DNA of 64,000 nucleotides from Solen grandis (lineage: Eukaryota; Mollusca; Bivalvia; Adapedonta; Solenidae), in contig CM037788.1 in assembly GCA_021229015.1 (NCBI GenBank), positions 41,086,049 to 41,150,048 of the forward strand, written 5' to 3'. Positions 35,528 to 61,400 of the stretch are shown here, piece by piece; the first letter of the stretch is position 1, and each line of letters begins with the position of its first letter. Under the pieces are notes generated by a model. It had not been told where the DNA came from. It was given only the letters and a program-made list of their open reading frames with translations, and ran no database searches. The position numbers and the translations under genes are program-made.

Positions 35528-35740
35528 CTACTCCGCAGGCTTGAGTCCTCTTATAGTCAGATCATACACAACTTCCTCCACTTTCTTCAGATCGTATTTC
35601 AAACCATCAAATCTCTTTCTTAAGGAGTCATTTTTCAGGTTCAGCAGACGAAATCCAGAGTCCATATCAGCAACAAACTTGGCAATGCGCATTGGTCTCC
35701 CATAGTCACCAGCAGTTACTGAGTTCACAGCAAGTCTGGC
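35528..35740 (-). CDS. TSN: TSN exon 6 and stop
   Basis: Acceptor GTATTCAG, 70 codons and TAG. Encodes ARLAVNSVTAGDY to IRGLKPAE, the most conserved part of translin. Confidence 0.97.
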   Translation of the reverse strand, partial: ARLAVNSVTAGDYGRPMRIAKFVADMDSGFRLLNLKNDSLRKRFDGLKYDLKKVEEVVYDLTIRGLKPAE

Positions 35741-38700
35741 CTGAATACAGAAAGTGCATCAATTTAGCCACCAATGAAATTTTATTCCATTCCAGTATTA
35801 CTTATCTCAACTGGTCATTTTCAAGCTGTTAATCAGTTGGAAATGGTGATCACTTAATCTTCTTAAATCATGCAGAAATAATCAAATCTCAGTTCAATTC
35901 TGAAATTGTAATTTGTGAAGAAAATATATTTGCTTCATTGCATCCTGAATTTCCTTCACTCCATGCTTTGTCAATGATAGTATAAGTCTCAAGACAGTAT
36001 GTCTTGTAGAAAAAGAAAAACGTTGAATTTAGATTCCAAATACAAAATGACATTAGTTTAACAAAGGAAAGTGACAGACTATTTTATCATATGTAGTAAC
36101 AGTAAAATCATTTATGACTAGTTTTACCACTTTGAGTTATTCCATTTGACAGTGTGTGCAAGTACAGCATTATATATATACATGTATATATCATCACATG
36201 GAACTACCGACATATAAATGTGAATGAACTGTTGTGAAATGATTCATCAAAAGAATTGGGAATTTACTAACAAATGGGGATCAGATTTATAAGTCCAACA
36301 ATAGTATTTGTAGAACATATTTTTGTTTTTGCATTCAAATAGTAGTAGTACAGGAATAGTTTCCTCATATTGAATCAGATCACTTGAAACAATATTTGGA
36401 TGTAACACTATTAATATCAAGGTTTGGTGAATATTGATATAAGCAGAGTTTACTGTATTTAAATATTTAGGGACCTATTTCATTCTCGTTCCATAAACAA
36501 ACCTATATCATTTATAGTAATGTCAACTTGTCATTTAAATACATATTTTTTAGAACTTAGGACAGTTGAATATGCTCCTATCTTATTCAAGATTAACCCT
36601 TTCCCTCATAGAGGACACCATGAAAAGACCTATGCGAACAGCATAAAACCAGATCAGCCTGCGAGTAACTCACAGGCTGATCAGGTTTTATGCTGTTCGC
36701 TGCTCCTCAGTAGTCTGGAAATGAGGATTTTATAATTAAATTTGGTAAGGTTTAACTGTGGTTTTCTGCAGATCAGGCTTCATGTGGTACCTATTGAGTG
36801 CGTCAAAATGAGTCTATATGAGGGAAAAGGTTAAAAGGAATTTCATAAACTTAGCAATAAAAAATTAAATGGAAGTTATCAGAGTGAGGTTTATTAGTCT
36901 TTTTAGTGAGCAGGGAATAATGACTTTCTAGGTGTAATAACAATGATCAATATGAGGAACTGAGTAAGAGAAATGTATCATGACAATTAAAGATAAAAGA
37001 GCTAAGCATATAATATGTAATTACATATATGTGTAGCAGAGCGTAATTTTAATGGTTTGCCTCATGTTCTCATTTGTTTATGTCTCATGTACATTGTTCT
37101 GTTATTGTGATCGTCTATCTACTTCCTGTTTGTAATGTCACATGCACGTTCTGTAATTGTCCAAGAGAATGAGAGAGTATGTCAGAGAGAGTCCGAGTGA
37201 GGTATACCCTAATTAAGAGTTATGTAAGGTTGTTATGATGCGAGTATGATGCAAGTTTTCTATTGGTTGGCCCGTCCCCCGTGCTTCTTTCCCTCGCTTT
37301 GTTCTTAATTTCACCACCAATTTTATAACTCTAGGCACTTCGATTTCCGATGTCATTCGATAAACATCCAGTCGTCGCTCTTACCTTTGAGTTACATTAT
37401 CATTTTGATGTTATATTATTCGACGTGCCTGGTGAGTTGTGGAATTGTTACTAAAACAATATTAGTATAATTACTATAACTATTTTAGTAGATTTTATCA
37501 GAAATACAATGTAAATCTTAATATTTTATCTTGTGAGTAAACGTTGGTGATTACATGTGCAATTACTCTAAAATATGTTCAACTTGTTTATTGTATTTTG
37601 TATGTTGCAGGTTTTTCTTTGAACCACGTCAAATATATTCATTGAATCCCAGCTGGTGTTCTTGTAATTAACACCCACTACATATGTAAATAGAGAGTGT
37701 ACCTAGACATCCCAATGTTTGATAAGTCATTATGATACTGAACCTTTACCATATAGGCCATATCAAGGAATGATCGATGTGCATCAGTCAGACATGTCAT
37801 GAATAAGCATGAATTCTTAAACGTCTGTACTACATGATTAAATTTGCAACAAGAACTATCACTGAAGGTGAATTATACCCCTACCTTTGATTTGCTTTGA
37901 TACAGAAAAAGGGCAATGACTGTAACAATAGCATTTTAATATTAGATATAAGAAATATGGCATAATTCCTTATTATTCCCTCTTGGTGACTTAGAACTTT
38001 TTCTTTTTTTTCAAAAGAGTTAATAAAGAAGGATTAAGGTATGAGACAGACACTGACCAGTTCACTTGCCAGCTGTAAGAGTCCCATAAGGTAGTCATCC
38101 AGGTCTATATGGAAGCCTTCCTCTCTCTGGATCTTCACTGAAGTATATTATGCAAGTCAGGTTATATGACAAAACATGTCAAAATGTCATTCCAGTATGA
38201 TGATTGGTCTGATTAGATCAACATCTTACGACCTGCTCCTATAAGGATTGATTAAAGTCGCAGTAAATCATCAGATTCTAACCACCTTCTCTAGAGACAC
38301 TCTCTAATCATCATCAGATTCTAACCACCTTCTCTAGAGACACTTTCTCTAATCATCAGATTCTAACCACCTTCTCTAGAGACACTCTCTAATCATCAGA
38401 TTCTAACCACCTTCTCTAGAGACACTCTCTAATCATCAGATTCCAACCACCTTCTCTAGAGACACTTCTCTAATCATCAGATACTAATCCACCTTCTCTA
38501 GAGACACTCTCTAATCATCAGATTCTAACCACCTTCTCTAGAGACACTCTCTAATCATCAGATTCTAACCACCTTCTCTAGAGACACTCTCTAATCATCA
38601 GATTCTAATCACTTTCTTTAGAGACACTCTCTAATCATCAGATTCTAACCACCTTCTCTAGAGACACTCTCTAATCATCAGATTCTAACACTTTCTCTAG

Positions 38701-41700
38701 AGACACTCTCTAATCATCAGATTCTAACCACCTTCTCTAGAGACACTCTCTAATCATCAGATTCTAACCACCTTCTCTAGAGACACTCTCTAATCATCAG
38801 ATTCTAATCACTTTCTTTAGAGACACTCTCTAATAATCAGATTCTAACCACCTTCTCAAGAGACACTCCCTAATCATCAGATTCTAACCACTTTCTCTAG
38901 AGACACTCTCTAATCATCAGATTCTAACCACTTCTCTAGAGACACTCTCTAATCATCAGATTCTAACCACCTTCTCTAGAGACACTCTCTAATCATCAGA
39001 TTCTAACCACCTACTCAGAGAACTCTCTTTTCATCAGATTCAAACCACTTCCTCTAGAGACACTCTCTAATCATCAGATTCAAACCACTTTCTCTAGAGA
39101 CACTCTCTAATCATCAGATTCTAACCACTTTCTCTAGAAGCACTCTCAAATCATCAGATTCTAATCACCTTCTGGGATACTCTTCTTTAACAAATTCTTA
39201 TCACCTTCCAAGAAAGGTAAAATGTTTCTTAATTAAGATAGTTATATGTGATGAAACCTGGTTCTATTCCTATGAGCCTGAAAGTAACTAACAGAGTTCA
39301 CTTTAGAAACATAATTTGTCTCCATCTCCTGAAAAAGCACATCTTCCCAAGTCAGCTGGTCATGTCAATCATTTTCTGTGACACTTAGAGCAAAGTTCTT
39401 TATCACATGGTACCAGAGGGTGAGTATTACTCCATTTAGATTAAAGGATTTCCTTAAAAACTGTTCCTCTGAATTTCTGAAGAAAAAAAATGGTTTTGAA
39501 ATTATGGATAATTTTCATTTTAATCTATTGAGTTCAGACCAATAAACTGCAATTAAATAATGCAAACTAGACATGCATTCATTAATATGTGATTGAGATG
39601 ACCTTGCATTTACTGGTAATTATAAACAATGTTGTATGTACTGTTAATTATACACAATGTAAATAACATAATGATCATGTTAATATGCAACTGATTTACA
39701 GCAACCATCATCAATTAATTTTCCATAACACTCAATCATCATTTATCTCTGAAAATCTCAAATCATTAAAAAATCATTATTTCGACATGGAAGATATACA
39801 CACAGTAGCTATCATAAAGTAGAGTGCGCATGTGATAGTTGTTGGATGTGAACATCATATTATCTTGTGCCATGCGATAACAACTGTGTGTATATCCAGT
39901 GGTTATCATAATCATGTACGCATGTGATACAGAAATATCTTTCATGTCTCAATATACCTAAGCAAAAAGAAGAGAAATAAGCCATCTTTTACCCCCCCCC
40001 TTTTTCTTTTTTAAAACAACAAATAGCTATATGTTTCTTTGACCTAAATTACTCAAGATTTTAAACAAATCAAATCTGAGAACAAACGGCTACAAATCCC
40101 TCATGACCAGTCAATATTAACCATTCTGACAAGACTAAAGACATGTGATGCCCACCTCCAATCATGTCTGCAACTCTGATCCTTGTTACCAACGTTTCTG
40201 ACTCCAAATATGTAATAAAAGCTGACAGGAAGGCCAACCTCTGCATCAAGAATCGCCACTGGTCATTGTATCTGTAAATATATTATTTTAGTTACTATTT
40301 TTCCTTAATATTTTCATAGAAAACAAAAAATTGATCCCAATTAAAACCTGTGCCTGACTCAATGTACTCTTAACAAAAAATTATTTTATTGTGGGCTGAG
40401 CACGAAACTTACCTTTTCTTCTTTCACTATAATTATGCATTATAGAACAGGTGCCCAAATATAAACCAAAATAACACTTTATACAATATCTTTATTGGCA
40501 TAAAATAGCAATATACATATTCATAGCCATGAACAATGGAAAACATAAATCCATACATGCGTGAAAAGCAATGGAAGAAAAAAATATTTTCAGAGAAGAG
40601 TTAAGAGAGAGTAAAATTATAGAGTATGACAATATAATTTTTGTTGATCATGTACACTTGTTTAATAGCATTAATTCAATTTATACAATGTATGCACTGA
40701 ATTAACCCTTTCCCTCATATAGACTCATTTTGACGCACTCAATAGGTACCACATAAAACCTGATCTACAGAAAACCAGTTAAACCTTACCAAATTTAATT
40801 ATAAAGTCCTCATTTCCAGACCACTGAGGAGCAGCGAACAGCATAAAACCTGATCAGCCTGCGAGTTACTCGCAGGCTGATCTGGTTTTATGTTGTTCGC
40901 ATAGGTCTTTTCATGGTTTCCTCTATGAGGGAAAGGGTTAATATACATGTACTAATTATTATGATAATACTGCATGTCACAAATGTTATTTATTGCAAAT
41001 ATGTTGCAGACAAGGATTTTTCATGGTTTCCCAGGTGCCAAGTACTGATCCAGCCAAGCTTCTGTCAAAAGGAATCAGAACAAGTTGTAAGAACTTGTTA
41101 CCAAATCAACATAACAATAAATAAGTTCAAACTAAAATGCTGTTTTTGAATCAATACTTAGGCATACAATGATCAAAACCATAGTACCTAAGGATATAGT
41201 ACATTATCCAAACAGACCGCTTAATTTGTGCAGAACTTTTAATACCGTACTTGATTTTTGGAGTACATTTGTATTATATTATTAACAACAATTAAACAAT
41301 TTTTTTGTTGCTTCTGTAGTGTTTTTTTAATTCAATTAAGAAGAAACACAATTTAACATTAATACAATTTTTGTATACTGCATATCTGACCACAGCATAC
41401 ACAGTGGAATATTGTACAACCAGACTTTGTAAAAATTAAAGGTGCACCATTACAAATCATTTCTTCAACTTATCCTCAAGTAACTGTAAGCTTTTATATG
41501 TTTAGTTTCATGATTTAAATTCACTATGATCATTCCTGACTGATGATGTCAGACTGCGTGATTACAAGGTAAATATTTTTCATCTGATCTATATTACCTG
41601 TAGTACTGATTTATATTACCTGTAGTACTGGTTTATATTACCTGTAGTACTGGTTTATATTACCTGTAGTACTGATTTATATTACCTGTAGTACTGACTT

Positions 41701-44700
41701 ATATTACCTGTAGTACTGATTTATATTACCTGTAGTACTGACTTATATTACCTGTAGTACTGGTTTATATTACCTGTAGTACTGATTTATATTACCTGTA
41801 GTACCGACTTATATTACCTGTAGTACCGACTTATATTACCAGTAGTACTGGTTTATATTACCTGTAGTAATGGTTTATATTACCTGAAGTACTGATTTAT
41901 ATTACCTGTAGTACCGACTTATATTACCTGTAGTACCGATTTATATTACCTGTAGTACTGACTTATATTACCTGTAGTAATGGTTTATATTACCTGTAGT
42001 ACTGATTTATATTACCTGTAGTACCGACTTATATTACCTGTAGTACCGACTTATATTACCTGTAGTACTGGTTTATATTACCTGTAGTACTGGTTTATAT
42101 TACCTGTAGTACTGGTTTATATTACCTGTAGTACTGATTTATATTACCTGTAGTACTGGTTTATATTACCTGTAGTACTGGTTTATATTACCTGTAGTAC
42201 TGGTTTATATTACCTGAAGTACTGGTTTATATTACCTGTAGTACTGGTTTATATTACCTGTAGTACCGACTTATATTACCTGTAGTACTGGTTTATATTA
42301 CCTGTAGTACTGGTTTATATTACCTGTAGTACTGATTTATATTACCTGCAGTACTGGTTTATATTACCTGTAGTACTGGTTTATATTACCTGTAGTACTG
42401 ATCTATATTACCTGCAGTACTGATTTATATTACCTGCAGTACTGGTTTATATTACCTGTAGTACTGGTTTATATTACCTGTAGTACTGATTTATATTACC
42501 TGTAGTACTGGTTTATATTACCTGTAGTACTGGTTTATATTACCTGTAGTACTGATTTATATTACCTGCAGTACTGGTTTATATTACCTGTAGTACTGGT
42601 TTATATTACCTGTAGTACTGATCTATATTACCTGTAGTACTGGTTTATATTACCTGCAGTACTGGTCTATATTACCTGCAGCACTGATTTATATTACCTG
42701 TAGTACTGGTTTATATTACATGCATTACTGGTTTATATTACCTGCGGTACTGGTTTATATTACCTGCGGTACTGATTTAAATTACCTGCAGTACTGGTTT
42801 ATATTACCTGTGGTACTGATTTATATTACCTGTGGTATTGGTTTATATTACCTGCAGTACTGATTTATATTACCTGCAGTACTGATTTATAATACCTGCA
42901 GTACTGATTTATATTACCTGTAGTACTTGTTTATATTACCTGTAATACTGGTTTTCCGGTATTTTCTGACCCAAGACTACCATGTTTTGCTGCACTGTGT
43001 CAAACAATGGTAAACACTTCTTGCATATCCCTGACACTGAAGCAATGAAACACATGAAAACAAATATGCAACTAATTATAACAAATTCAGAATATTTATA
43101 AGAGTTGCTACAGACTACTAATCTATTTAACTTAAGTTAATAAAGGATTAAAGCAGCTTGTTCACAGATTTTCAATAGAAATTCAAAAAAAAGAAAATTT
43201 CTTCTCTCCCTCATTAATGTTGATAAAGTCTTTGTTTCCTGACAAATAAACTCAGAAAGTGTAGGTCATATTGCACAAGAAAATGTTATTTTTGTAAATG
43301 CAACTTTGACAAATATAGAATACTGTATCCCCAAAGCAGATGCTTGCGTAACACATTCCGCAACATGGCGTCTTCACCACTTCAGAGTAGCAATTTGTAT
43401 GAAGTTAGTGCATGTGCTAAAAATGAATACTATGAAAATAGAAAATCTAAATACAGGTTTTACAATAATTATTCAAATATAGTTTCAATACAGTCTATGA
43501 CAGTACTGCCTGTGATGGAGAAACCACCCATTTTTTACAATCATGGATGGCTGCATCGAGTTATTGATAGACACACATAATTTATTTAAAATCAAATTCT
43601 AAGTCAATGACCATCTGCTAATGAGCTGATTTAATGTACATTAAAATTTAAACTTATTTATTTATTTATTTATGTAGATTGGGAAACAAGTTCTTACAAC
43701 TTATACTATCCCTCTCAACATTTCCTGGGTTGGACCAGTACTTTGCACTTGGGAAGGTCATAAATAATTCTTGCCTCCAACTGGGATCAAACCCATAACC
43801 TTTGGATAAGTTACCACTGGACCACGGCACCCTCAAAGTCTTTGTGACTGATACATTTAACCATGCACTATTTAAAACATTGTTTCTAGTTTCCTTTTCA
43901 GTGAAAGCTAAAAAGATGTTTAAATAGTTAATTTATAATAATTAAATGTACTGTCTATTATCATTAATAATAATAATTAAATATACTGTTTATTGGTTAG
44001 CAGGCCTTATCTAAGAGACAGTGTCAGCCTTGAGATAATTTGTTTCCATCTGAATGTTACAAATATACGTACCATTTTTGATCCCTTCAGCTTGGTGCAC
44101 TGTTTGTAACTGTGTCAATATTTCTCTTGCATTTTGCTCTAGTTCTCTTACAACAACTCTTATTTCCTGAAATATAATTCTTCACTCAGATATTATGAAA
44201 GAGAAAGAGATCAGTTTGTATTATGTAATGTACCAGAGCAAATGATATTTATGATGGAAAATATGTTAAAACTATATGGATGTTCCTCAAAATTTATAGA
44301 TTTAAATTGGGATCTACCTACAAGTTATCACTATACAAAATCAAGGTCATATCATTGGAGTGAATCCATCCTAAAGAAGTGACATACATTTGTAATGCTC
44401 CTGACATTTTTTTTAACAAAATCAACTATGGGGGTTAATTCAAGAATTAGATGAGCTATTAAAAGTAGTGGTTCTTGTGCACTGCACTTCTACATCTCAT
44501 AAGGTATTCATGTTTCAGGCTACGTCTACTTGATACAGATATATAGTGCTGCCACACTGCAGTATTGCGCTGTAGACATGTGGCATGATACCACACCCAG
44601 TCACATTATCCTTACACTGGGCCAACCTATCTGTGAACTACTCGTATATGCTGAGTGCAAAGCAAGGGAGCTATACAAGTACCATCTTTAATGACTTTGG

Positions 44701-47700
44701 TATGTCACAGCCAGGAATCAGACACACAAACTCCTGATTCCAGATTGAATGATGAACCTGCTGAAGCGTGACTGACAGACAACCAAGAAGTCATTCTTAT
44801 GTGTCACCTCTGCTTACTGCAGGTGACACAAAAACTGGAAATATAAAAGATGAGGACTCAATCATTTATGGTCATATGAACACTGTGACTCTGACCTAAC
44901 CAAGTGAAGTAACCTTGACCTTCAAGCTAGGGACCTGGTTCTTGTTTGCAAAACATCCTTTTGTCCTATGGACCTCTTCCATGCTAATTCAAAACACAAC
45001 TAAAATTGTGTCCATAGGACATGGATGCCCCTGCCATTTTGTTTATAATAGATTGACATTTTTGTAAGTGAGTATGATGAGAAACTGGAAATACAAAATG
45101 AACGCTGGCTTCAACCAAGATTTGGAATTATTTGACCTTGACTTTCAAGCTAGCAACCTAGTTCTAGATTGCGACACTTTATTTTGTCCTTAGGATTCCT
45201 TGTGCCAGGTTATTTCAAAGCACAACCATACACAACTAAGTTACAGCCTGGACATGAATCTTGCCCGGACTTACACACACACCTGTGTAATATTATATGC
45301 CCATTGCAAGTTCATGCCGGGGGCATAGAAAAAAAAAGAAGCTAATGATGTATTTTCATTAGGATCATTTGTGCCAAGTTATTTCAAAACTCGCCCATAC
45401 ACAAAAGAGTCAACCAAATGCAGTGACCTTGACCTTGAAGCAAGTGACCTGTTTCTTGTTCGCAAAACATTGTCTTGTCCCTAAAGGATAACTTGTTTTT
45501 TTATAAAAATTCTTATTGCTTTTTTAAAATTAAAAGGGCAGGGACAAGATTTAAACCCCTTCCTTAAGGAAAAACACATCGTCTTGTCCTAAGGATTACT
45601 TGTGCCAAGTTGTTTCAAAACCCACCAGACATAACAAAGTTACTGCTGGGTCAAAATTTTGTGGTCAACTGAGTGCTGTAACATTGACTTTCAAGCTAGT
45701 GACATGTACATTGCTTTGTTCTAAGAATCACTTGTGCCATTTTATTTCAAAACACAATCATACACAACAAAATGACACCAGGAACATGATTGCTTGCACA
45801 GACTAACATGCAGGTCTAAAAATATAAATGTGAATTACCTAAGCAGTCAGACTGGTTATCAATATTGCTCACGTGGATATACGCTGCACAGAGAAAAATC
45901 GACAAGCAGTCTATGACAAGACCTTCACCTGTGTATTTCACAGAAAGGGCAGTTTTGATAGTTGACACTTCAGTGTTGAAGGGTTGAGCAGATTTTCAGC
46001 AAATTACACTAATTGTATGAGTGAATGAAGGATACCCTTAGAGATCATTATTATTTAATTGCTGGTAGAATCAAAAGATAGTCATAAGTTAAGTTGTTAC
46101 AGCTCTGATTTATGATCTAGTCAAATTTTTTTGGCAAACGAAAGTAAGTGGTAAAAACTTAATTATCCACTATGATACAGTTTGTTTTTTTTATCAACCC
46201 ATCTTTCCCAATAAGTGTTTTTAGAGTAATTAAAAAAAGATTCAGTCAATACGCCAACCCCTCAATCAAAGTTGGTGATGTTATCTCCATATTAAGGGAG
46301 CATGGAGAATTAAGTTACACATTAAGACGGGCGGCACGAAATACCCAAATCTACCCAAATCTTACCCAAATCTTCCCAAATCTTACCCAAATCTACCCAA
46401 ATCTTACCCAAATCCACCCATAAATCATGAGATATAAGGAAATAATTGTTTGTATTTACAAATAATACTGAAATTTTATCAAAACAACGTGTACACGATG
46501 TATTTTTGATCTTCCGAGCGATCTATATTCCGGGTCCAGTAATTGTGTAAGATGCGGTTGGTGACTGTACTGCAGTATAACATCCTTTATACCTTACCTG
46601 TGTACGTAATGTTTATTCTTCCCTGTTTCAGTCGTTTCGGTACTACCATTAAATTTTATATTAATATTTACATACCCAAATCTTCTCAAATTTCTACCCA
46701 AATCTCCTCAAATCTTTACCCAAATCTTCTCAAACAATAGACTAATCACCCTTTAAAGCATTTAAAAAAAAGTTGATTTTAATTATTGTAAATAAATCAT
46801 AGTAACTGTAAGATCTAAAAAAAAATGTATATATATAATTATGTACACAGGTATGAAATCTTACCCAGATCTACCCAAATCCTCGCCACAAATCATGCGA
46901 TCGGTTTTCTCACCAAAGCATCTCTTTTTTTTTTATCTTTTTTTTTTTTAGATATAACTGTAACTACAAAACAGCAATTAAAATCATTTTTGATGAATGT
47001 TATACTGCAGTACAGTAACCGACCGCATCTTACACAATTATTGGATCCTGAATATAGATCGCTCGGAAGTTAAAAAATACATTGTGTACACATTGTTTTG
47101 ATAAAATTTCAGTATTATTTGTAAAAACAAACAATTATTTCCTTATATCTCATGATTTATGGGTGGATTTGGGTAAGGTTTGGGTAGATTTGGGTAAGAT
47201 TTGGGAAGATTTGGGTAAGATTTGGGTAGATTTGGGTATTTCGTGCTGCCGCATTAAGACTATCTAGAGCAATGTTCTGTAACATCTAAGGCTTACATAT
47301 TACTTATTTCATTTCTAACTGCTAACAATATATATATATAATCTTAAGCCTGTTTATAGAGGGTTTTTTTTTTTAATGATAACTGATTTACACAGGGAAA
47401 AAAAATCTTGAAAATTGCGGTTTTTTCCCCACAAAATGAAAATTGCATTTTTTTCCCCACAAATAGGGCTAGGGCACCTTCCCGAAAACTGGAAAAAAGG
47501 CCCTGGACAAATGCAACACTAAATGCATTTTGCCATTTCATGATGGAAGCATAAAAAGAGCTATAATCTGTTGTTGGCTAGGCATCTTATGTGTCCTGGC
47601 TCCATCTGTAATCAGGAGATGGAGAGCTTGATCCCTTAGCATGTATTGACAAAGCTAGTTGATAAATAGGAAAGCACATGAGAAGGATTTCTCTTTTAAA

Positions 47701-48029
47701 AGTTGAATGGGTTGTTTGTCTTTGATAAATTTATTTTGAGATCAAAATTTAAAAAAAAAAGACCAATGCCAGTTTATGAACCCAGCAATATGACAATCAG
47801 TTTGCTATGACACTTCACTCGTGTATATAGCTTATTATCTGCCTTATGTAGGATTTGAGGGATTAACTGCTGTTTCCCACGTATGTGTTACTCTTACGAC
47901 ATGACTGTTCACAACTAATGATTGAAAAACATTTAAATCGTTTTGACATTGTACCTCTCTTAATGATTGATCTCCTTCTAACTGCTGCTGAAATTCTGAA
48001 AAAATTTGACCGACATTGCCTTCTGCCAT
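35528..48029 (-). CDS. TSN: Translin, complete, six coding exons
   Basis: Exons on the minus strand, 5' to 3': 48029-47955, 44166-44073, 43036-42940, 40271-40156, 38137-38058, 35740-35528. All junctions are GT-AG and phases agree, giving 224 residues (human translin is 228). Translin binds single-stranded DNA and RNA, forms an octamer, and with TRAX makes the C3PO endoribonuclease that helps remove the siRNA passenger strand and process tRNA. Recognised segments: MAEGNVGQIFSEFQ start, LREEIRVVVRELEQNAREIL, QYYRYNDQWRF (the second basic, nucleic-acid-binding region), LESETLVTR, GFHIDLDDYLMGLLQLASEL, VNSVTAGDYGRP (includes VTAGD), GFRLLNLKNDSLRKRFDGLK and VEEVVYDLTIRG. The start is ATG at 48029, aligning with the usual N-terminus; an in-frame ATG nine codons upstream is less likely. 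Introns total about 11.8 kb and are rich in repeats. Confidence 0.96.
36597..36830 (-). mobile_element. piggyBac-like MITE, copy A
   Basis: TTAA on both sides (36593-36596, 36831-36834). Ends CCCTTTCCCTCATAGAGG and TATATGAGGGAAAAGG. Opposite orientation to the other copies. The centre holds a long palindrome (AGCATAAAACCAGATCAGCC... against GGCTGATCAGGTTTTATGCT). In TSN intron 5. Confidence 0.85.
37032..37682. mobile_element. Probable solo LTR
   Basis: Starts TGTAG and ends CTACA (matching 5-bp inverted ends in the TG...CA form of LTRs), 651 bp, flanked by TATG at 37028-37031 and 37683-37686. It is somewhat richer in GC than its surroundings. A TTTTATAACT box lies near 37321. No internal retroelement genes adjoin it. 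Family not assigned. Confidence 0.5.
38058..38137 (-). CDS. TSN: TSN exon 5
   Basis: 80 nt, acceptor ATACTTCAG, donor CTG|gtcagt. Encodes KIQREEGFHIDLDDYLMGLL and QLASEL. Confidence 0.95.
38266..39170. repeat. 40-bp tandem repeat in TSN intron 4
   Basis: About 22 copies of a 40-bp unit with TCTCTAGAGA (palindromic) and AATCATCAGATTCTAACCAC. It begins about 130 bp upstream (in gene sense) of exon 5. Copies are more than 90% alike by eye. Confidence 0.95.
40156..40271 (-). CDS. TSN: TSN exon 4
   Basis: 116 nt, acceptor TATTTACAG, donor GGAG|gtgggc. Completes the split Arg (AG|A) and encodes YNDQWRFLMQRLAFLSAFIT, YLESETLVTRIRVADMIG. Confidence 0.96.
40706..40937 (+). mobile_element. piggyBac-like MITE, copy B
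   Basis: TTAA duplications at 40702-40705 and 40938-40941. Ends CCCTTTCCCTCATATAGACT and CCTCTATGAGGGAAAGGG. Central palindrome of about 33 bp per arm (GCGAACAGCATAAAACCTGA ...). In TSN intron 3, between exons 3 and 4. Confidence 0.9.
41588..42939 (-). repeat. 22-bp minisatellite of the TSN exon 3 splice donor
   Basis: About 60 tandem copies of a 22-bp unit. In TSN sense it reads AACCAGTACTACAG|gtaatata. The native exon 3 end and donor (42953-42932) is AACCAGTATTACAG|gtaatata, one synonymous base different from the commonest copy. The array starts at the true donor with no spacer and runs into the intron. Variants include ACTGCAG and TACCGAC types. Confidence 0.95.
42940..43036 (-). CDS. TSN: TSN exon 3, source of the adjacent 22-bp minisatellite
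   Basis: 97 nt, acceptor GCTTCAG, donor ATTACAG|gtaata. Encodes SGICKKCLPLFDTVQQNMVV then LGQKIPENQYY and two bases of Arg. The exon 3' end plus donor is the template of the array at 41588-42939. Confidence 0.94.
43683..43832 (-). repeat. tRNA-derived SINE fragment
   Basis: On the minus strand the head has TGGTCCAGTGGTAA (A box) and GGGTTTGATCCC (B box), read from about 43832 down to 43782. The body includes GTGCAAAGTACTGGTCC in complement. It lies in TSN intron 2. Confidence 0.6.
44073..44166 (-). CDS. TSN: TSN exon 2
   Basis: 94 nt, acceptor TATTTCAG, donor AATG|gtacgt. Encodes EIRVVVRELEQNAREILTQL and QTVHQAEGIKN. Confidence 0.95.
44541..44770 (-). repeat. tRNA-derived SINE (CACACTGCAGTAT family)
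   Basis: Matches 16966-17225 in the same orientation (TATATAGTGCTGCCACACTG; GACATGTGGCATGAT). In TSN intron 1. Confidence 0.65.
44870..45800. repeat. Dispersed repeat block in TSN intron 1
   Basis: At least four diverged repeats with GACCTTCAAGCTAG, TTGTCCT(AT)GGA, TTGTGCCAAGTTATTTCA and CATACACAA phrases. No coding content. Confidence 0.55.
46329..47252. mobile_element. Fold-back element with ~260-bp inverted repeats, hAT-like
   Basis: The arms (about 46329-46590 and 46970-47252) are inverted copies, roughly 90% alike by eye. Their outer part is a tandem of ACCCAAATCT motifs. Exact 8-bp direct repeats ATTAAGAC flank it (46321-46328, 47253-47260). No transposase frame. The 8-bp duplication fits the hAT superfamily, an inference. 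The core holds further CCCAAATCT pieces. It sits in TSN intron 1. Confidence 0.88.
47955..48029 (-). CDS. TSN: TSN exon 1 (coding part)
   Basis: 25 codons, MAEGNVGQIFSEFQQQLEGD to SLRE, donor GAG|gtacaa. Phase 0 exit. Confidence 0.93.
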
Positions 48030-57725: not shown

Positions 57726-58281
57726 ATTAGTGATGGTAGGGTTGTATAACAGTATGGTATATTGATCAAGAAATTACTGATCAATTAAATACAGTAAATT
57801 TGCGATAAATGGAGTACCGAAGGGGGGGATATAAAATCATCGGGTTATCGCGATGTTCGGACAATCGAGAGCACATGTTGTATTCATTTTCTTGGAAAAT
57901 AACCTATGTAAGGACTAGGAATGTATCTTGGAATGTGTGGTATTCGGATGTTCGCAATTTAATAGCACTAAATGTAGTCGACTGATCCGACACCGTTTTC
58001 CATTATATAATTAATCAAACACTTTGCAATATAATTGTATAAAGCAAAAAGGCAAGTAAAAAAGTGTTGCCAAATATTAAGTTACCCACTATTTCTATCT
58101 GATTTGATGAAAAACGTTTTCGTCTTAAATCTAATATTAAAGTTATTAATATTTATAAATACACATGTGTTTTTTGACCGTAATAAAATGATATTTTCTA
58201 TTTTGTGTTCAATACAATTGTTGTTAAAATTTACACCACCTGACATGTGGATGTATCTCTCTCTCCGTCTGTCCGTCACAG

Positions 58282-58417
58282 TCACCCCGGGGAGGCAGTA
58301 TACATGGACGACTCTGAGGGGCTCTTCACTTTTGGCGGGACAGAAATCATGTCCAGCTTTCGGGGGTATATAGGTCAAGCTACGTACTACAGGAACCGGG
58401 TACTGGAGCACACACAG
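58282..58417 (+). CDS. SEL1L3: SEL1L3 exon (LamG-like domain)
   Basis: Acceptor CCGTCACAG, donor CAG|gttcgt. 45 whole codons after one split base. Confidence 0.85.
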
Positions 58418-61400
58418 GTTCGTATATGTGCTGTTGTTTGTGTCACAAATTTGCGGTAGTCGTGGTAACAGATGCTATTAATTATTTGCATCTAGGTAGT
58501 GTATTAGTGTTGATTAAAACTTCGCGTGAGTTGCTGAGATATCTTGACACTAAGATGATCGCCGTTCATGACATTTTCTACTAAGGCATAAAAAAACGTT
58601 GTTTGTATCCACCAGCCCGACCGACCCTATTTGTAACCATACCGATTTTAAACATATTTTATTAAGTTGTTTTTTTATTCAAATTCTTTACATCAAAATG
58701 ATTATGTTATATTAAAACGTATTCCTGACAGATAGTGGATTGTGGCTTACACAAGTTCTTCGTCAGTTTCAACTTGATCCTGTGAGTGGCCGTGTCTATC
58801 ATCTCAATCTGCACGGTGATGAAAAAGCCATTGTTTCATAAACCATTTACTAGTATAATATACAATAAATGAATATCCCTTATGTCATATTTGTACATGA
58901 GGCTGGTATCAGTGGGTACCGCCACATGACTAACAGTTTACCACGAACATAATGATTTCATATTCCGTGATAATATGTCAGGGTTTTTATTCCTCAATTA
59001 TATAGTTCTATTAATTCCCCCTCAGATTCCGTTCCCGAGCCGATTTCATCCAATGTTCGAGTTAAAGTTGACCCGGAGAGAGGAGAAGTGCCGGGCGTAC
59101 ATTGACTGGGTGTCCCATAGGATAGTCGTACACAAGGCCGCACTCCGCCGGGAAATCCGACAGAGTAGGTGTTCCAAAATGTGTTTATTGCAATATTGAA
59201 AATAAGTTCCAAAAATCTTTTCATTGAACAAAAATGCGTGTTTTACTAGATATCATGTTTCTTAAGCATACAAATAGAATGTATTAATACCACTGTTAAG
59301 GCATTATTATTTGAAATACATTACTTGCTTCGTGCTTTTTCTATTTCATAGATTTAAACATATTCTGCAAATTTCAATAAATGAAAAACTTTGCTTTTGA
59401 TAAAAAAGAAACCTAAATGAATTCGGTCTTTCTTGTAACTTGTATACCAGAAAAGATGTGTTTCCGCTTAGCTTTTCAGGCAAGTGGTATTTTACAATTT
59501 CAGACTCCTGTACTCGGCCATTTTTGGAAATTCTCAAAAAAGCAACAAAGCTCAAACGGCCTGCTCAAACCTGCGGCCTTCATGGTCGCGGTAGGAGCCG
59601 CACGTGGTCTAGTGCCGACAATATCGTCCGAAAAATGGTCATGGAGAACGAAGTCATAAATTTCACAACAATCGCAGATCATCTTTACGACAATGCTACC
59701 ATCTTGCTGGTAAGATACATTTGTATAATATGAAACGGTAGCAACGGTTATGGTCATTGATTTACAAACTCCCGGGCCCTCTCCGCAGTGGATTCAAACC
59801 CGGTACTTTGATTTTTAGGATTTTTTCGAAATTGTGGCAGGTCGATTCTAGACTCCCTATGCCTGGGCGTCGCTTCACTAATGAAAAAAACCCAACAAAC
59901 TTATGACCCAAACGATTTAATAGCTTTCTATGACATTCTTGCACAAACAAATACTTTCACAACAATAAACTTTACAATAATATAAAAGTCTATTTTTACA
60001 TGATGTTTGATTATACGCACACTGACAATTATTAATACAAATTATTGGTGATGCCGCTAAACTACGCAATTAAAATATTTATTTATACCGTTTTTCAAAC
60101 ATTTTCAAATCTATTTGTTTGTAGGATGAGTCTATTGAAAATGTTCCACGTGCATTTCCGATACTGAAGCAGTCCGCGTGCTATGGTAACTACGACGCCA
60201 TGTATATGGTGGCAGTGATCTTAAATAACGGAATCTACGTCAAATCAGACGAAATACAGGTATGGGTCAACACATGCGATTTTTTTCTTATGTTTTGATC
60301 TTATAAATCTTAGAATAAAATATAAATTGAAGATTTTATTTTCTTCAAAATTAATAATAAGTACAGAGACTATATTTTTCTTCTGAAACAGAGTGTAGCC
60401 TACCTAATGTTGGCGGCCTTGGATAATCATCGGTTGTCTGCCCTTGCGCTTGGCCACAAACACCGCTACGGTATAGACGGCGTACCCATCGATCTGGAAC
60501 AAAGCTATGGTACTTTTATTAAAAAATCTTTTTTTAACAAAATCTTAAATATAAATACAAATATGCAGATTTTACAAACTCGTGAAGAACCTTTGTGTCT
60601 CACATCCTAAAAGATTAAACCACAATCTACAGTTTTGCCTGTATGAGGCTGATTAATCTGCATTGGAGGAAATTGCCCTGATTGGACTTCATCTCAGTAT
60701 ATCCTGGATTCACAAAATATGTCTTCATGTATTTTCTTACATCACATTTTGCCTTTGATTATTTACCGTTATGTAACGACACCAGAGACAAGCAAGTGGA
60801 GGCAAGTCAAGATTTTAGTCCACAGTCATGGATCAAATAAAACAATATGTTTTCTATTGATGGCCTTGACACGGTGAATTGATTTATCAAAGATCCATTA
60901 TTCTTCCAAAAGCAGTGTCCTTAGGATAGAAAAGCAGATGTGTGTTACAGATGTGTTAAGAGATGAAATCTTCATGTATTCGTTGACGACAAAGATAAAT
61001 CAATTGTTCACAAAAATACCTGATTTGCATTATTATTTGCAAAGCTTAGTCAACGTTTTCCATAGACCTTCCGTACACGAATCGCCAGTACATAAATTGA
61101 TGACGTAGCAGAATGATTAAAAAATGTGAAACAACGACGGTTTTTTAATTCAAATTATTTCCGATTCTGTGTCTTTGGGAATATCGCCAATGCAAAATAT
61201 AAACAATGGTTGTATTTTGACATTCATACAAAATACTAAATGGCCTGATTTGATCAACATTTCATTTCATTAACTGTATTACCGTATTTTGATATCATAT
61301 GTAATGTTATTTTATCATCTCTTTTTCATGAAATTTGTATCATCATGGGCCTTTAAAGCCCGAAATACATGAATAATCAAATTGGGTATTTTTATTTTAA

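What the first reader, a model, noticed from the sequence alone, without database searches (positions are those of the whole stretch)
41588..42953. Minisatellite made of about 60 copies of the translin exon 3 splice donor
Seen directly: in TSN sense, exon 3 ends CAGTATTACAG|gtaata at 42940, and from there about 60 head-to-tail 22-bp copies of the same junction follow (last 14 exon bases plus first 8 intron bases; commonest form differs by one synonymous T/C). Each full copy is a CAG|gtaata donor with good potential to pair with U1 snRNA. Reading past the true donor gives ...TAC AGG TAA, so use of any distal copy adds a stop right after Arg-89, where the nucleic-acid-binding QYYR-YNDQWR segment begins. 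Inference: the array arose by slippage of a 22-bp piece spanning an exon/intron edge. It could act as a decoy or reservoir of donors, or as a U1-binding array, tuning translin output or truncation. I know of no described case.
Basis: partly seen in the sequence, partly recalled or inferred. Interest (0 to 1): 0.9.

Follow-up and report, generated by a model that had tools for sequence, protein, structure and literature searches.

The report
Sixty-one-fold copied translin splice donor
A translin gene, likely a clam's, carries 61 tandem 22-base copies of its own exon-3 splice donor just inside the next intron; splicing likely still starts at the true edge, and any copy used instead would cut the protein off at residue 89.

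Summary
In an intact six-exon translin gene (minus strand, 48029-35528), exon 3 ends at 42940 and is followed without a gap by 61 full 22-bp copies plus a 14-nt partial copy of the exon 3/intron 3 junction (42939-41584), half of the 2,668-nt intron. 58 of 62 in-register donors, true one included, are exactly CAG|GTAATA. Joining any of the 61 distal donors to exon 4 gives the same 89-residue protein, ending at the equivalent of human Arg-86, a nucleic-acid-binding residue.

'No described case' is wrong: human IFI6 (6-16) has a minisatellite that supplies several splice donors (Turri 1995, known to me only through citing papers). Here the unit is 22 bp, was likely copied from a coding edge, and every distal choice is a stop.

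Most likely this is a minisatellite seeded by duplication of the exon edge and tolerated because splicing stays at the exon-defined first donor, with slight leakage to the nearest copies. Predicted U1 pairing is equal in 59 of 62 donors, and predicted RNA accessibility does not favour the true one. No significant constraint on the donor core was found. No RNA, no second individual and no relative's DNA of this gene could be examined.

The parts
42940..43036 (-). translin exon 3, 97 nt, encodes ...KIPENQYY and the first two bases of Arg-89
   Evidence: AG and GT borders; protein aligned to translins
42940..42954 (-). last 15 exon bases, AAACCAGTATTACAG, shared with the consensus repeat unit at one mismatch (synonymous T/C)
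   Evidence: searches place the exon edge in register with the array
42932..42942 (-). true exon 3 donor, CAG|GTAATATA (first intron base 42939)
   Evidence: needed for the intact 224-aa translin
41584..42939 (-). minisatellite: 61 full 22-bp units (consensus GTAATATAAACCAGTACTACAG) plus a 14-nt partial unit; 61 distal donors, 57 exactly CAG|GTAATA
40272..42939 (-). translin intron 3, 2,668 nt, of which the array is 1,356 nt
40156..40271 (-). translin exon 4, completes Arg-89 and continues YNDQWRF
35528..48029 (-). whole translin coding region: exons 48029-47955, 44166-44073, 43036-42940, 40271-40156, 38137-38058, 35740-35528; intact 224-aa frame
   Evidence: Pfam Translin E 5.9e-60

Best explanation
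Intron 3 of this translin gene starts with a minisatellite of 61 full 22-bp copies (plus a 14-nt partial one) of the exon 3/intron 3 junction, which likely arose by tandem duplication of that edge and later growth in blocks, and splicing is predicted to stay mostly at the exon-end donor. Shown: the array, its register with the exon, near-identical donors, the stop after Arg-89 for every distal donor, and a repeated 10-unit block. Inferred: U1 can bind many copies, but exon definition from the exon 3 acceptor fixes the first donor in most transcripts. Leakage should fall on the nearest copies; only 9 of the 61 distal donors would keep exon 3 at 300 nt or less. Each leak would give an mRNA with a stop upstream of later exon junctions, so it is likely removed by nonsense-mediated decay, or yields translin 1-89. 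The array is thus most likely a tolerated passenger with a small dosage cost, not an adapted device.
For: Array and register. The exon edge is dictated by a conserved protein stretch: Y87 and Y88 invariant and Q86 nearly so among 21 aligned translins (20 of the 120 hits listed, of 1,293 found; residue 89 itself is Lys in 3 of the 21), so the exon most likely predates the array. Gene intact: 224-aa frame, Pfam Translin, 78% identical to Mercenaria translin. All 61 distal donors give the same 89-aa product. U1 duplex energy is -8.1 kcal/mol for 59 of 62 donors, the true one included. Block growth: identical units at lag 10 in 31% of pairs, 0 of 2000 shuffles reach it at that lag and 6 of 2000 at any lag from 1 to 24. 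Six other arrays of over 400 bp lie in the window, so minisatellites are common here. [quoted passage not shown]
Against: No RNA was examined, so use of the first donor is inferred from the need for intact translin. Predicted RNA accessibility does not favour the true donor (rank 16, 44 and 36 of 62 in three settings). The 22-nt spacing may be close enough for steric hindrance at the true donor, which would make the array costly. The passage leaves room for distal choice, and I recall, without a call, that with two equal donors in vitro the one nearer the acceptor can win. No variant in the 9-nt donor core is shared by two copies (0 of 4 types), while 8 of 12 variant types elsewhere in the unit are (Fisher p 0.077); this hints at constraint. 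One exonic base does set the true donor apart: T at -6, against C in 60 and A in 1 of 61 units, so a local cue is not fully excluded.
Confidence: 0.62

Rival explanations
1. Leaky-donor dosage brake: a notable share of transcripts use distal copies, each giving the stop after Arg-89, so that repeat number sets translin output through decay of those mRNAs.
For: 57 of 61 distal donors have the exact core of the true donor and 41 of 61 are identical from -5 to +9; all give the same stop; U1 pairing and predicted accessibility do not favour the true donor. IFI6 transcripts do use two downstream repeat units as donors, according to PMC4526556 (passage).
Against: No RNA data. Most copies would make exon 3 very long (52 of 61 over 300 nt, up to 1,439 nt), against exon definition. 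No significant constraint on donor cores. A search for proteins like translin 1-89 found no candidate, though a collection with this species' transcripts may not be in it.
Confidence: 0.18
2. U1-binding array: U1 bound along the array protects the rest of intron 3 from premature cleavage and polyadenylation, or holds the transcript on chromatin.
For: 59 sites of the true donor's predicted strength in 1.36 kb, against 0.73 equally strong sites per kb per strand elsewhere in the window. The array has 0 AATAAA and 0 ATTAAA, the rest of the intron 3 and 4. U1 is said to prevent polyadenylation up to 1 kb from its sites (PMC5389562, passage).
Against: The intron is only 2.7 kb and its true donor would already cover part of it. 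No significant excess constraint on the U1 core. The array also carries 60 AATATA, a weak signal variant by recall. At 22-nt spacing not all copies are likely to be bound at once.
Confidence: 0.08
3. Ratchet or intron-gain substrate: nearly every unit ends CAG|GTAA, an acceptor-like end fused to a donor, so array units could splice to each other or seed new introns.
For: [quoted passage not shown]
Against: The consensus unit's last 15 nt before CAG are 47% pyrimidine and AGs are frequent, 124 in the array. Neither test is strict: the real exon 4 acceptor has 40% and the exon 2 acceptor has another AG 11 nt upstream. The intron is short for recursive splicing (recalled).
Confidence: 0.05
4. Assembly artefact or wrong repeat number.
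For: Long tandem arrays are often mis-sized; no reads were available.
Against: The units carry 16 variant types in a non-random order with a 10-unit block structure, the flanks are not repeat copies and the gene is intact, so the array is likely real even if the copy number is off.
Confidence: 0.05

Closest known systems
Human IFI6 (6-16, G1P3) minisatellite providing multiple splice donor sites (Turri, Cuin and Porter 1995, NAR 23:1854; not held; title seen in reference lists)
   Same: A minisatellite at an exon's donor whose units are themselves donors; two downstream repeat units are used in IFI6 (passage of PMC4526556).
   Different: From recall, the IFI6 unit is 12 bp and adds in-frame residues. 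Here the unit is 22 bp, matches 15 coding plus 7 intronic bases, and every distal choice is an immediate stop. Use of copies is untested here.
Intron gain by tandem duplication across an intron/exon border (PMC4974935, abstract)
   Same: Tandem duplication of a segment that spans such a border and carries AG|GT.
   Different: There a duplication makes a new intron; here 61 copies lie inside an existing intron, and the frame is complete without any new one.
Duplicated 5' splice sites with multiple U1 occupancy (PMC5389562 passages; Hodson 2012 and Eperon 1993 cited there, not read, for the first)
   Same: Several donors compete for one acceptor.
   Different: By recall those are built test substrates with few sites; this is a natural series of 61 at 22-nt steps.
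Recursive splicing ratchet points (recalled)
   Same: Acceptor-like and donor ends fused as CAG|GTAA.
   Different: No clear polypyrimidine tract (47% pyrimidine), 2.7-kb intron, dozens of copies.

Membership tests
Splice-donor minisatellite (IFI6 kind) | Tandem array that overlaps an exon's donor in register | tested here: met
   the array continues the exon edge without a gap.
Splice-donor minisatellite (IFI6 kind) | Units are donor-like | tested here: met
   58 of 62 exactly CAG|GTAATA; 59 of 62 with the true donor's predicted U1 pairing.
Splice-donor minisatellite (IFI6 kind) | More than one unit used as donor in mRNA | not testable with these tools
   No RNA of this species; a protein search for the 1-89 form found no candidate, which is weak.
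Intron gain by tandem duplication | Duplicated AGGT-bearing segment across an exon/intron border | tested here: met
Intron gain by tandem duplication | A new intron spliced from the duplicate | not testable with these tools
   The coding frame is complete with the six exons alone; no RNA.
Recursive splicing ratchet point | Polypyrimidine tract before the fused AG|GT | tested here: inconclusive
   Consensus unit 47% pyrimidine over 15 nt; four real acceptors of this gene (exons 2 to 5) 40-73%.
Translin gene | Intact translin domain | tested here: met
   Pfam PF01997 E 5.9e-60; PDB translin E 4.3e-40 for the exon 2-5 part.

The most novel reading that the evidence does not exclude
A coding exon's splice edge has become a self-made donor array that sets gene output: repeat number tunes how often U1 leads splicing astray into a stop at Arg-89, so translin dosage would vary between individuals with array length.
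Probability: 0.13. Interest if true: 0.8.

Novelty: new variant of a known kind. Interest (0 to 1): 0.5.

Why it matters
It is a natural series of 61 nearly identical donors at 22-nt steps behind one exon. The donor core is exact in 57 of 61, predicted U1 pairing is the same in 58 of 61, and predicted accessibility does not favour the true site, so position is what mainly remains to choose the site. Counting junctions per copy in ordinary long-read RNA would measure how exon definition falls off with distance in a living animal. If leakage is real, repeat number would be a heritable dial on an RNA-binding protein.

Tried and rejected
RNA structure as the selector of the true donor: rejected. 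A fold around the true donor looked stable (z -2.42, 3 of 200 shuffles as good) and pairs the exon end with the next copy, but local accessibility ranks the true donor 16th, 44th and 36th of 62 in three settings. Changing the exon T at -6 to the array's C in silico raised the true donor's accessibility in two of three settings and lowered it slightly in one, and raised that of copy 1 in all three; so the exon T tends to hide both. A mid-array fold had z -1.05, 33 of 200 shuffles as good.

Selection on the donor core: 4 of 16 variant types fall in the 9-nt core (binomial p 0.15); 0 of 4 are shared by two copies, against 8 of 12 outside (Fisher p 0.077; 61 full units). Rotation control: 3 of 22 blocks carry no amplified variant, among them the donor core. 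Control arrays in the window, using only units that fit without indels: 40-bp 2 of 40 blocks, 18-bp 0 of 18, 33-bp 0 of 33; the 54-bp and 80-bp arrays, with 7 and 8 units, gave 12 of 54 and 41 of 80 and are too small to say. The 164-bp array was not used. Not significant. Greater divergence next to the exon (first 12 units) is suggestive only: in 171 of 2000 shuffles one of five blocks reaches it. Distance from the consensus does not fall significantly with copy number (Spearman p 0.35).

Truncated translin 1-89 in protein collections: no candidate. Copies of the junction elsewhere: none in the window outside this register, none as exact 20-mer in viral contigs or genome contigs, which are viral and prokaryotic collections. 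Rfam: nothing at gathering threshold in the window. Literature searches for further splice-donor minisatellites gave nothing nearer than IFI6 in what was listed: 4 papers, none, one review, not opened, 10 of 48 listed. One search, on translin with bivalve repeats, listed 6 of 134, none holding the word translin. One search listed 8 of 61 papers on U1 telescripting; none opened.

Full report
What is there. The minus strand carries an intact translin gene. Exons are 48029-47955, 44166-44073, 43036-42940, 40271-40156, 38137-38058 and 35740-35528; joined they give a 224-aa frame from ATG to stop, a Pfam Translin match at E 5.9e-60, and 78% identity to Mercenaria mercenaria translin, with Mactra, Mya and Dreissena next among the hits that bear a species name. 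The species is therefore likely a clam, but no call names it.

Exon 3 ends TATTACAG at 42940. From 42939 to 41584 follow 61 full 22-bp units and a 14-nt partial one, in one register without indels. The consensus unit is GTAATATAAACCAGTACTACAG. The exon's last 15 bases match the unit with one difference, a synonymous T/C. A 20-mer over the junction has 62 matches in the window with up to 3 mismatches, all in this register, against 0.01 expected. So the exon edge is part of the array. The exon spells a conserved stretch: Y87 and Y88 are invariant and Q86 nearly so among 21 aligned translins, 20 of them chosen from the 120 listed hits; residue 89 is Lys in 3 of 21. The exon is therefore most likely the source.

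Donors. Counting the true donor there are 62 sites in register. 58 are exactly CAG|GTAATA; the exceptions are copies 2, 7, 10 and 50. From -5 to +9, 41 of 61 distal sites are identical to the true one; from -8 to +10 none is identical and 33 of 61 differ at one base, because the exon has T at -6 where 60 of 61 units have C and one has A. Predicted pairing with the U1 5' end (recalled sequence) is -8.1 kcal/mol for 59 of the 62, the true site included; the donors of exons 1, 2, 4 and 5 range from -5.7 to -8.9. Outside the array 94 of 7,196 GTs in the window, both strands, pair as well, 0.73 per kb per strand. The copies are thus about as good as the real donor, though not a full consensus, since +5 is T.

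Consequence. Joining each of the 61 distal donors to exon 4 in a script gives one and the same product: 89 residues ending ENQYYR. Arg-89 aligns with human Arg-86, one of the residues R21, R36, R86, R92, Q96 and R192 named as the known nucleic-acid-binding region in PMC3834833 (passage). With copy 1 the stop ends at coding nucleotide 270 and junctions follow at 288, 404 and 484, so decay is likely by the usual distance rule (recalled).

History. Units identical at a lag of 10 make up 31% of pairs; 0 of 2000 shuffles reach this at lag 10, and 6 of 2000 at any lag from 1 to 24. Six consecutive units, 14 to 19, recur at 24 to 29. So the array likely grew in part by duplications of blocks of about 220 bp. 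The 12 units next to the exon are the most divergent (mean pairwise 2.68 against 1.91 overall), but 171 of 2000 shuffles match that, and distance from the consensus shows no significant trend along the array.

Is it kept by selection? 4 of 16 variant types lie in the 9-nt donor core; none of the 4 is shared by two copies, against 8 of 12 outside (Fisher p 0.077). In a rotation control 3 of 22 blocks, the core among them, carry no amplified variant; the 40-bp control array has 2 of 40 such blocks. This is a hint at best. The window holds seven arrays of over 400 bp, this one included; another, of 40-bp units, lies wholly in translin intron 4. Minisatellites are ordinary here; the unusual thing is where this one was seeded.

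How it most likely works. Little that is local singles out the true donor: U1 pairing does not, the bases from -5 to +9 do not in 41 of 61 copies, and predicted accessibility does not favour it; the T at -6 and the exon upstream of -15 do differ. The gene is intact and conserved, so the true donor must be used (inference). The likely selector is exon definition from the exon 3 acceptor: 9 of 61 distal donors would give an exon of 300 nt or less (the 300-nt yardstick is recalled). [quoted passage not shown] 22 nt may be near that limit. I therefore predict dominant use of the first donor with slight leakage to the nearest copies.

What is known. [quoted passage not shown] The paper itself is not held; PMC4526556 says that two downstream repeat units serve as splice donor sites, giving three mRNA species (passage). 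The present array is of the same kind but differs in unit, in its likely origin from a coding edge, and in that all distal choices are stops. Tandem duplication across an intron/exon border is also known as a route to intron gain (PMC4974935, abstract).

Limits. No RNA, no reads, no second individual and no DNA of the same gene from relatives could be examined. The search of the window's own genome did not complete. Absence of closer reports rests, in an open-licence library and, on the listed part only.

Noticed in passing
46330-47250: Element in translin intron 1 with 254-bp inverted arms, 95% complementary, 413 nt apart, with TACCCAAATC subrepeats in the arms: looks like a foldback-type mobile element.
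   Followed up: no
38266-39173: Second minisatellite in the same gene (intron 4): 40-bp unit, 22.6 copies, wholly intronic; used as a control array.
   Followed up: partly
40834-40900: Near-perfect palindrome with 33-nt arms (94%) in intron 3 downstream of the array; a similar sequence is visible near 36634-36700, so likely a dispersed repeat.
   Followed up: no
285-395: Run of 111 C just before an 18-bp minisatellite of 2.7 kb; possibly an assembly or read artefact.
   Followed up: no
58085-58474: Reading frame with a weak Kazal-type inhibitor match (E 4.9e-05), possibly an exon of another gene.
   Followed up: no
42933-42948: The exon end GTATTAC can pair with the GTAATAT of a following copy, and the exon's T instead of the array's C completes that pairing. 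With the T, predicted accessibility is lower for copy 1 in three of three settings and for the true donor in two of three, so it does not favour the true donor.
   Followed up: yes
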